The notes under the pieces are model-generated. The model saw only the letters and a program-made list of their open reading frames with translations. It did no database searches and was not told the DNA's origin. Positions 10,890 to 11,003 of a DNA stretch of 39,779 nucleotides are shown here, piece by piece. Source of the DNA: a virus. The translations under genes and the position numbers were made by a program. The DNA lies in IMG/VR virus record IMGVR_UViG_3300047560_002121, positions 1-39,779 of that record. One strand, given 5' to 3'. Each line of letters begins with the position of its first letter. Position 1 is the first letter of the stretch.

Positions 10890-11003
10890 AGGATCCGTTT
10901 CTTGACTTGTTGCTCTACCATTGAGCTATATCTTCCATAAGAAAGATAGTGAGAGTCGAACTCACAACACACTAGTTTATGAATAGTTTGCTGTATGGAT
11001 CCT
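10890..11003 (-). tRNA. Circularly permuted tRNA (CAU candidate) in the repeated element (copy D)
   Basis: Minus-strand order: AGGATCC, CAGCAAAC, anticodon loop region with TTCATAA, T-arm (GTGAG, TTCGACT, CTCAC), 3' acceptor TATCTTTC, tetraloop-sized linker TTAT, 5' acceptor GGAAGATA, D-arm GCTCAATGGTAGAGC, AAGAAAC, GGATCCT. The acceptor strands pair over 8 bp. If the D-half end ACAAGT is joined to the loop, ACAAGT/ACTAGT forms an anticodon stem with one mismatch around TTCATAA, suggesting Met or Ile2. No CCA encoded. Confidence 0.78.

What the first reader, a model, noticed from the sequence alone, without database searches (positions are those of the whole stretch)
10890..11003. Third permuted tRNA, with an 8-bp acceptor hairpin and CAU candidate anticodon (copy D)
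The 3' acceptor TATCTTTC, loop TTAT and 5' acceptor GGAAGATA form a simple hairpin, so the precursor is a continuous, stable fold. Joining the D-half end ACAAGT to the loop TTCATAA makes a stem with ACTAGT. This gives a testable junction and suggests Met or Ile2 identity.
Basis: partly seen in the sequence, partly recalled or inferred. Interest (0 to 1): 0.75.

Follow-up and report, generated by a model that had tools for sequence, protein, structure and literature searches.

The report
Phage Y-RNA-like tRNA mimic
This is not the gene of a scrambled transfer RNA but one of about eight small phage RNAs that wrap a tRNA look-alike in a common handle and travel with a phage version of the Ro60 RNA-binding protein, which opens a testable route to how viruses shield or manage tRNAs.

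Summary
The sequence features are real. On the minus strand, 11003 to 10887 has the order T arm, closed 8-bp acceptor hairpin, D arm, i.e. a circularly permuted tRNA body. That handle recurs seven times in the window (0.12 expected) and in hundreds of elements on phage contigs. The two stem positions left free by the search pattern are Watson-Crick paired in 161/162 short and 91/104 long viral elements, against 5/22 in bacterial controls. Inserts are anticodon stem-loops or tRNA bodies opened at different points. Elements lie on the strand of the nearest tRNA in 411 of 415 cases. They travel with a Ro60-like protein (Pfam DUF2828/DUF7788; Ro60 fold, Z 21): 28 of 31 frame-bearing records have it, T4 lacks both, and six phages tested for the protein alone all carried the handle. 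The window's own copy lies at 1-1203. I conclude that this is a Y-RNA-like RNA with a YrlA-style tRNA mimic, not a spliced Met/Ile2 tRNA; CAU is not conserved. The role is inferred (decoy or tether). The handle also resembles Dictyostelium Class I RNAs.

The parts
10887..11003 (-). whole element D: Y-RNA-like RNA with permuted tRNA-like insert (117 nt, AGGATCC...GGATCCTGTT)
10997..11003 (-). P1 terminal stem, 5' strand AGGATCC
   Evidence: pairs with 10890-10896; family-wide covariation
10890..10896 (-). P1 terminal stem, 3' strand GGATCCT, followed by GTT (10887-10889)
10988..10996 (-). conserved handle motif NUNCAGCAA (ATACAGCAA)
   Evidence: same motif core in Dictyostelium Class I model
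10971..10987 (-). ACTATTCATAAACTAGT: 3' strand of the permuted anticodon stem (CTAGT, 10971-10975) or, alternatively, a local hairpin ACTA/TAGT; holds the CAT (10979-10981) taken for an anticodon
10949..10965 (-). T arm GTGAG-TTCGACT-CTCAC
   Evidence: sequence; YrlA alignment
10929..10948 (-). closed acceptor hairpin TATCTTTC-TTAT-GGAAGATA
10912..10926 (-). D arm GCTC-AATGGTA-GAGC
10906..10910 (-). ACAAG, 5' strand of the permuted anticodon stem (27-31)
1..1203 (-). Ro60-like protein gene (DUF2828 + DUF7788, vWA), cut off by the end of the contig
   Evidence: fold of full-length relative
1214..1270 (-). short handle element directly in front of the Ro60-like gene; insert hairpin with CAT loop
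1579..1779 (-). probable long handle element (AGGTTAG...CTAACCTGTT, insert of unknown kind; motif base before CAGCAA departs from consensus)
   Evidence: loose scan
10671..10790 (-). handle element with permuted tRNA: intact anticodon stem-loop TCTTT-TTTGAAC-AAAGA, then T arm, acceptor hairpin, D arm
20243..20307 (-). short handle element; insert can form a pseudoknot (GCTA/TAGC, TTGTC/GACAA)
21036..21148 (-). handle element with permuted tRNA, closest in-window relative of D
21726..21783 (-). short handle element; insert TTTTTC-TTTGGAT-GAAAAA (7-nt anticodon-like loop, UGG); matches Dictyostelium Class I RNA model at 32.6 bits
21958..22021 (-). short handle element; insert TTAGA-CTTTTAA-TCTAA = tRNA-Lys(UUU)-like anticodon stem-loop

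Best explanation
Element D is a small structured non-coding RNA of the Y-RNA kind, made by a phage that also encodes a Ro60-like ring protein. Shown by sequence and comparison: (1) a terminal 7-bp stem plus the motif UNCAGCAA and the end CUGUU form a conserved handle; (2) the handle carries interchangeable inserts, and in D the insert is a tRNA body permuted so that the acceptor stem is a closed hairpin and the outer stem leaves where the anticodon loop would be, the same order as in the bacterial Y RNA YrlA; (3) handle elements sit in phage tRNA arrays and travel with DUF2828/DUF7788 proteins that have the Ro60 fold. Inferred: the handle is the Ro60-binding part; the RNA is released from the tRNA-array transcript by tRNA processing; the insert acts as a tRNA mimic that cannot be aminoacylated. 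Most likely use, at about even odds: a competitive decoy for tRNA-cutting host defence nucleases (about 0.4), or a tether or gate that brings tRNA-handling enzymes or damaged tRNAs to the Ro60 ring (about 0.4). It is not a precursor of a decoding tRNA.
For: Handle: seven elements in the window against 0.12 expected in Markov controls. The free stem positions are Watson-Crick paired in 161/162 short and 91/104 long viral elements with 13 pair types, against 5/22 in bacterial genomes. Placement: 411 of 415 elements share the strand of the nearest tRNA, median distance 8 nt. Mimicry: of short elements, 171/229 have a hairpin with a 7-nt loop, 141 of these with U33 and 127 with A37. Long elements fall into the arm orders ASL-T-acceptor-D, T-acceptor-D, D-ASL-T and T-acceptor-D-ASL. 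In one permuted scaffold positions 33 and 37 are constant in 22/23 while position 35 takes all four bases. D matches YrlA end to end with the same arm order (36.6 bits, E 5.6e-7 for 151 bases). Protein: DUF2828 in 29 of 33 records searched (28 of the 31 known by then to carry frames); T4, without frames, has none. KVP40, positive for the protein, then proved to have a frame in its tRNA array, as did five of five further phages picked only for the protein. Window copy: 94.7 and 80.6 bits. Fold: Foldseek's ten best hits are all Ro60 or TROVE structures; Z 21.1 over 407 residues to Ro60 1yvr.
Against: No expression, binding or processing data. Rfam scores for YrlA are far below the gathering cut-off (36.6 against 69), and the YrlA model also rings weakly on tandem tRNA genes. 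Three frame-bearing IMG/VR records (G011, G013, G021; linear, perhaps fragments) lack a detectable DUF2828, DUF7788 or TROVE protein. D lies about 9.7 kb from the Ro60-like gene; only other elements adjoin it. The decoy role rests on analogy and on the anticodon pattern.
Confidence: 0.82

Rival explanations
1. One reading: a permuted tRNA gene whose precursor is cut and re-joined at the anticodon loop to give a functional Met or Ile2 tRNA (CAU).
For: Permuted order; cross-pairing in tRNA register supported by relatives; some long relatives still carry ACCA after the acceptor strand.
Against: CAU not conserved; closed 4-nt acceptor loop without CCA; the outer stem and motif are more conserved than any tRNA part and enclose non-tRNA inserts too; the phage already encodes three intact CAU tRNAs.
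Confidence: 0.04
2. Same RNA, but the tRNA-like insert serves only to recruit or gate enzymes of RNA repair or decay at the Ro60 ring (tether model, as for Deinococcus Y RNA with PNPase), not to distract nucleases. This is a sub-model of the best explanation, not an alternative identity.
For: Established role of bacterial Y RNA as tether (reported in PMC7790460); RtcB-type and other RNA ligase genes near the Ro60-like gene in Listeria LMSP-25, and RNA ligase genes near it in phiM7 and Aeromonas 4_4572.
Against: Does not by itself explain the spread of anticodon loops across anticodons.
Confidence: 0.35
3. A decaying remnant of tandem tRNA genes: 3' half, spacer and 5' half of two neighbouring copies, without function.
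For: The order 3' half-spacer-5' half is what tandem tRNA genes give, and may be how such inserts arose; the YrlA model rings on such tandems.
Against: Perfect covarying handle stem, conserved motif, stable fold, and the same architecture in many phages.
Confidence: 0.03
4. A processing or spacer element of the tRNA array (site for a nuclease, or terminator) with the insert unimportant.
For: Tight spacing to tRNAs (median 8 nt) and same strand.
Against: Inserts are constrained (U33, A37, covarying stems, intact T and D arms); link to the Ro60-like protein, and elements next to that gene outside tRNA arrays.
Confidence: 0.05

Closest known systems
Bacterial Y RNA YrlA (Rfam RF02553), partner of Rsr/Ro60 in rsr-yrlBA-rtcBA operons
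   Same: Outer stem, then T arm, closed acceptor hairpin, D arm; coupled to a Ro60-type protein; reported as tRNA-like and proposed as a competitive inhibitor of an anticodon nuclease (PMC7790460).
   Different: Score below gathering cut-off; the handle reads AGGAUNN-NUNCAGCAA...CUGUU instead of the YrlA consensus acggCgaAUGC...; partner protein is DUF2828-type, not PF05731; many different inserts per phage, including lone anticodon stem-loops.
Class I RNAs of Dictyostelium (Rfam RF01414)
   Same: Short terminal stem kept by compensatory change, 11-nt motif (CCUUACAGCAA in the Rfam consensus) beside its 5' strand, end CUGU, variable insert, about 60 nt (PMC7919456). The model rings in 18 of 22 records searched (17 of 21 frame phages; the T4 hit lies in a coding gene) and in 0 of 14 control genomes.
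   Different: Best score 36.9, below the cut-off of 41.5; eukaryotic promoter element; reported as unique to dictyostelids; known binding protein Rnp1A is an RRM protein.
Permuted tRNA genes of red algae and archaea (from general knowledge)
   Same: 3' half precedes 5' half.
   Different: No conserved anticodon at the junction, no CCA, enclosed in a conserved non-tRNA handle; elements opened at several other points exist.
Ro60-like proteins of phages (mycobacteriophage 'Ro-like RNA binding protein', Thermus phage phiLo Ro60 9l5y)
   Same: The window protein is of this fold and family.
   Different: No solved or tested DUF2828-type complex with RNA found.

Membership tests
Bacterial/phage Y RNAs (Ro60 partner RNAs), broad sense | encoded with a Ro60-type protein | tested here: met
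   Ro60-fold protein gene in the window at 1-1203 and in 28 of 31 frame-bearing records
Bacterial/phage Y RNAs (Ro60 partner RNAs), broad sense | ends joined in a stem that binds Ro60 | tested here: inconclusive
   stem present and covarying; binding itself not testable here
YrlA (Rfam RF02553) | tRNA-like module: T arm, closed acceptor hairpin, D arm in this order | tested here: met
   full-length alignment 1-114/114
YrlA (Rfam RF02553) | score at or above Rfam gathering cut-off (69 bits) | tested here: not met
   36.6 bits; therefore called YrlA-like, not YrlA
TROVE (PF05731) Ro60 proteins | match to the TROVE profile | tested here: not met
   no match in the window or nine records; the protein is DUF2828/DUF7788 instead
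Ro60 fold | HEAT-like ring plus vWA domain with MIDAS | tested here: met
   Z 21.1, rmsd 3.9 over 407 residues to 1yvr; DxSGSM invariant or nearly so
Dictyostelium Class I RNA (RF01414) | terminal stem, UUACAGCAA-type motif beside its 5' strand, CUGU end | tested here: met
   alignment; feature list in PMC7919456
Dictyostelium Class I RNA (RF01414) | score at or above gathering cut-off (41.5 bits) | tested here: not met
   best 36.9 bits
Functional permuted tRNA gene | 3' half precedes 5' half with pairing anticodon stem | tested here: met
Functional permuted tRNA gene | anticodon restored at the junction and conserved | tested here: not met
   the loop sequence around CAT varies and CAT is missing in several relatives
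Functional permuted tRNA gene | splicing or ligation of the halves | not testable with these tools
   needs RNA from infected cells

The most novel reading that the evidence does not exclude
One ancient kind of Ro60-partner RNA spans phages and social amoebae: the Class I RNAs of Dictyostelium and these phage RNAs share one handle, and in phages the handle displays a fast-changing library of tRNA pieces as decoys against tRNA-cutting defences.
Probability: 0.3. Interest if true: 0.9.

Novelty: new variant of a known kind. Interest (0 to 1): 0.72.

Why it matters
The same protein-plus-RNA pair occurs widely: 681 public phage records carry the Ro60-like protein, among them classic phages such as Felix O1, where four handle elements lie unannotated in the tRNA array. 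If the inserts are decoys, they would help explain why large phages keep tRNA arrays and how they survive anticodon nucleases, and would give a test for the idea that Y RNAs inhibit such nucleases. If the handle is truly shared with Dictyostelium Class I RNAs, it points to a binding partner for an RNA class of unknown mechanism.

Tried and rejected
T4 stable RNAs C and D were checked as possible members: no handle. Bacterial genome hits to the handle pattern were examined: the stem pairs at near-chance rates and the inserts are not tRNA-like, so they are treated as chance. A weak T4 hit of the Class I model lies inside a coding gene and is chance. Ro60 was first sought with PF05731 and missed; DUF2828 is the right profile. 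One BLAST query of the window region against named phages found only an ordinary neighbouring tRNA-Met. Literature searches for phage tRNA decoys or permuted phage tRNAs found no description in the held library; the main Y RNA papers (Chen 2014, the Sim and Wolin reviews) are not held, so part of this may already be described there. In one search the tool's tally of 29/33 includes T4 (negative) and KVP40 (positive, frame not yet known then).

Full report
Observation. Read on the minus strand, 11003 to 10887 is AGGATCC-ATACAGCAA-ACTATTCATAAACTAGT-GTGTT-[T arm GTGAG TTCGACT CTCAC]-[TATCTTTC TTAT GGAAGATA]-TA-[D arm GCTC AATGGTA GAGC]-A-ACAAG-TCAAGAAAC-GGATCCT-GTT. The fold has z -3.1 against shuffles. 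ARAGORN tRNAs in the window but none here.

The part that was missed. The ends of the element pair (AGGATCC/GGATCCT), and the 5' strand is followed by AUACAGCAA. A scan for this handle finds seven elements in the window, all on the minus strand, against a mean of 0.12 in 100 Markov controls. The pattern fixed only five of the seven stem pairs. The two free pairs are Watson-Crick in 161 of 162 short and 91 of 104 long viral elements, with 13 pair types; the same pattern in bacterial genomes gives 5 of 22. This is strong covariation for an RNA stem. Of 415 elements with a tRNA in the same locus, 411 have the orientation of the nearest tRNA, at a median distance of 8 nt.

What the handle carries. 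Short elements (about 55-70 nt) mostly hold an anticodon stem-loop: 171 of 229 have a hairpin of at least 4 bp with a 7-nt loop, with U33 in 141, A37 in 127 and A38 in 117. The commonest strict loops are those with UUU, UGU, UCU, GUU, GUA, GGA and UGA anticodons in the usual C32-U33...A37-A38 setting, with covarying stems. Long elements (about 95-125 nt) hold tRNA bodies opened at different points: between D and anticodon arms (27 elements), in or near the anticodon loop (48 scored T-acceptor-D, D among them), with the acceptor replaced by the handle (17), or after the anticodon arm (at least 2). In one permuted scaffold with a TCTTT/AAAGA anticodon stem, loop positions 32, 33, 37 and 38 are nearly constant while position 35 takes all four bases. 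Some inserts are not tRNA-like at all.

Element D in particular. It falls among the T-acceptor-D inserts. In its 13-member subfamily the anticodon-stem pairing 27-31/39-43, taken in strict tRNA register, holds in 53 of 65 cells (shuffled mean 38.3, 0 of 5000; relatedness not removed). A competing local hairpin of positions 41-45 is complete in 11 of 13. The two exclude each other, so the RNA may switch, or one may be a by-product. CAU is not conserved. Infernal aligns D end to end with YrlA, the bacterial Y RNA with a tRNA-like module, at 36.6 bits (cut-off 69; E 5.6e-7 for 151 bases, 6.4e-5 in a 17-kb search); the arm order is the same. Because tandem tRNAs also give weak YrlA scores, this alone is not proof, and D is not filed as YrlA.

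The partner. Felix O1 has four handle elements in its tRNA array, one with a permuted tRNA, and just upstream an 'RNA-binding protein' that is DUF2828 plus DUF7788 in Pfam. The window encodes the same protein, cut by the contig end, at 1-1203 minus (94.7 and 80.6 bits), with handle elements at 1214-1270 and probably 1579-1779 before it. Of 33 records searched, 29 have DUF2828 (28 of the 31 then known to carry frames); T4, with no frame in its tRNA region, has none. KVP40 was positive for the protein before its frames were examined; a frame was then found in its tRNA array. Five more phages chosen only for the protein (Mycobacterium BigCheese, Sinorhizobium phiM7, Aeromonas 4_4572, Listeria LMSP-25, Campylobacter CPX) all carry frames near the gene, two to eight each, against 0 to 0.2 in controls. 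An AlphaFold model of a full-length relative (pLDDT 82.9, pTM 0.84) has the Ro60 fold: Foldseek's ten best hits are all Ro60 or TROVE structures, and VIA-align gives Z 21.1 over 407 residues to 1yvr. TROVE's own profile does not detect it. tblastn finds the protein in 681 phage records, some annotated 'Ro-like RNA binding protein'.

How it probably works. Shown: handle, inserts, placement, partner gene. Inferred: the tRNA-array transcript is cut by tRNA processing enzymes, leaving handle RNAs between tRNAs; the Ro60-like ring binds the handle; the insert presents tRNA surfaces but, having no free acceptor end, cannot be charged. The authors of PMC7790460 suggested that YrlA's tRNA-like domain may be a competitive inhibitor of the anticodon nuclease in Salmonella, and also noted the tether role known from Deinococcus. 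The variety of anticodon loops in the phage RNAs fits the decoy idea; nearby RNA ligase genes fit the repair idea. I rate these about equally.

Relation to Dictyostelium. The only Rfam family that recognises the short elements in the searches made here is Class I RNA (RF01414): 36.9, 34.5 and 32.6 bits, cut-off 41.5. It rings in 18 of 22 records searched, including T4, where the hit is inside a coding gene, and in none of 14 control genomes. Class I RNAs share the short covarying stem, the 11-nt motif beside its 5' strand, the CUGU end and a variable insert; a 2021 study that searched other eukaryotes and Myxococcus called them unique to dictyostelids (PMC7919456). Common origin or convergence on the same kind of partner cannot be told apart here.

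Verdict. The kind (phage Ro60 with Y RNAs, tRNA-like module) is known in outline; the handle family, its range of displayed tRNA pieces and the Class I link were not found in the literature I could reach.

Noticed in passing
window 1579-1779 (-); similar inserts in L098, L138, L139, L071: Long handle elements next to the Ro60-like gene carry an insert of about 100-180 nt with recurring pieces (TGGAG...GAAGG, GTGATGGC or TTTCGA hairpin, AAAAAGNAG) that matched no Rfam family in the searches made.
   Followed up: partly
window 20243-20307 (-); L075, L080, L082, L184 and others: A common short insert type (GCTAACT..TGG..GTCTAGCGACAAAA) can form an H-type pseudoknot instead of an anticodon stem-loop.
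   Followed up: no
L009 3757, L165 1093, L043 5904: Some permuted inserts keep ACCA after the 3' acceptor strand and a longer spacer, which looks like an intermediate from tandem tRNA genes to closed-loop mimics such as D.
   Followed up: no
records of L052, L076, L154: Frame-bearing contigs of 114-212 kb without a detectable DUF2828, DUF7788 or TROVE protein; either incomplete or using another partner.
   Followed up: partly
short elements in all loci: Anticodon stem-loop elements are mostly of the U36-A37 type (84 of 127 with U36), while the permuted TCTTT/AAAGA scaffold is mostly A36-A37-A38: the two classes read by different position-37 modification enzymes.
   Followed up: no
KVP40 NC_005083 (locus L247) 30582-36214: Five annotated 'tRNA-Pseudo' genes of odd length lie in the KVP40 tRNA array and may be unrecognised elements of this or a related kind.
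   Followed up: no
window 14618-15781 (-), 24027-37252 (+): The contig encodes at least five radical SAM proteins (one just under Pfam's cut-off) and a glycosyltransferase, unusual density for a phage.
   Followed up: no
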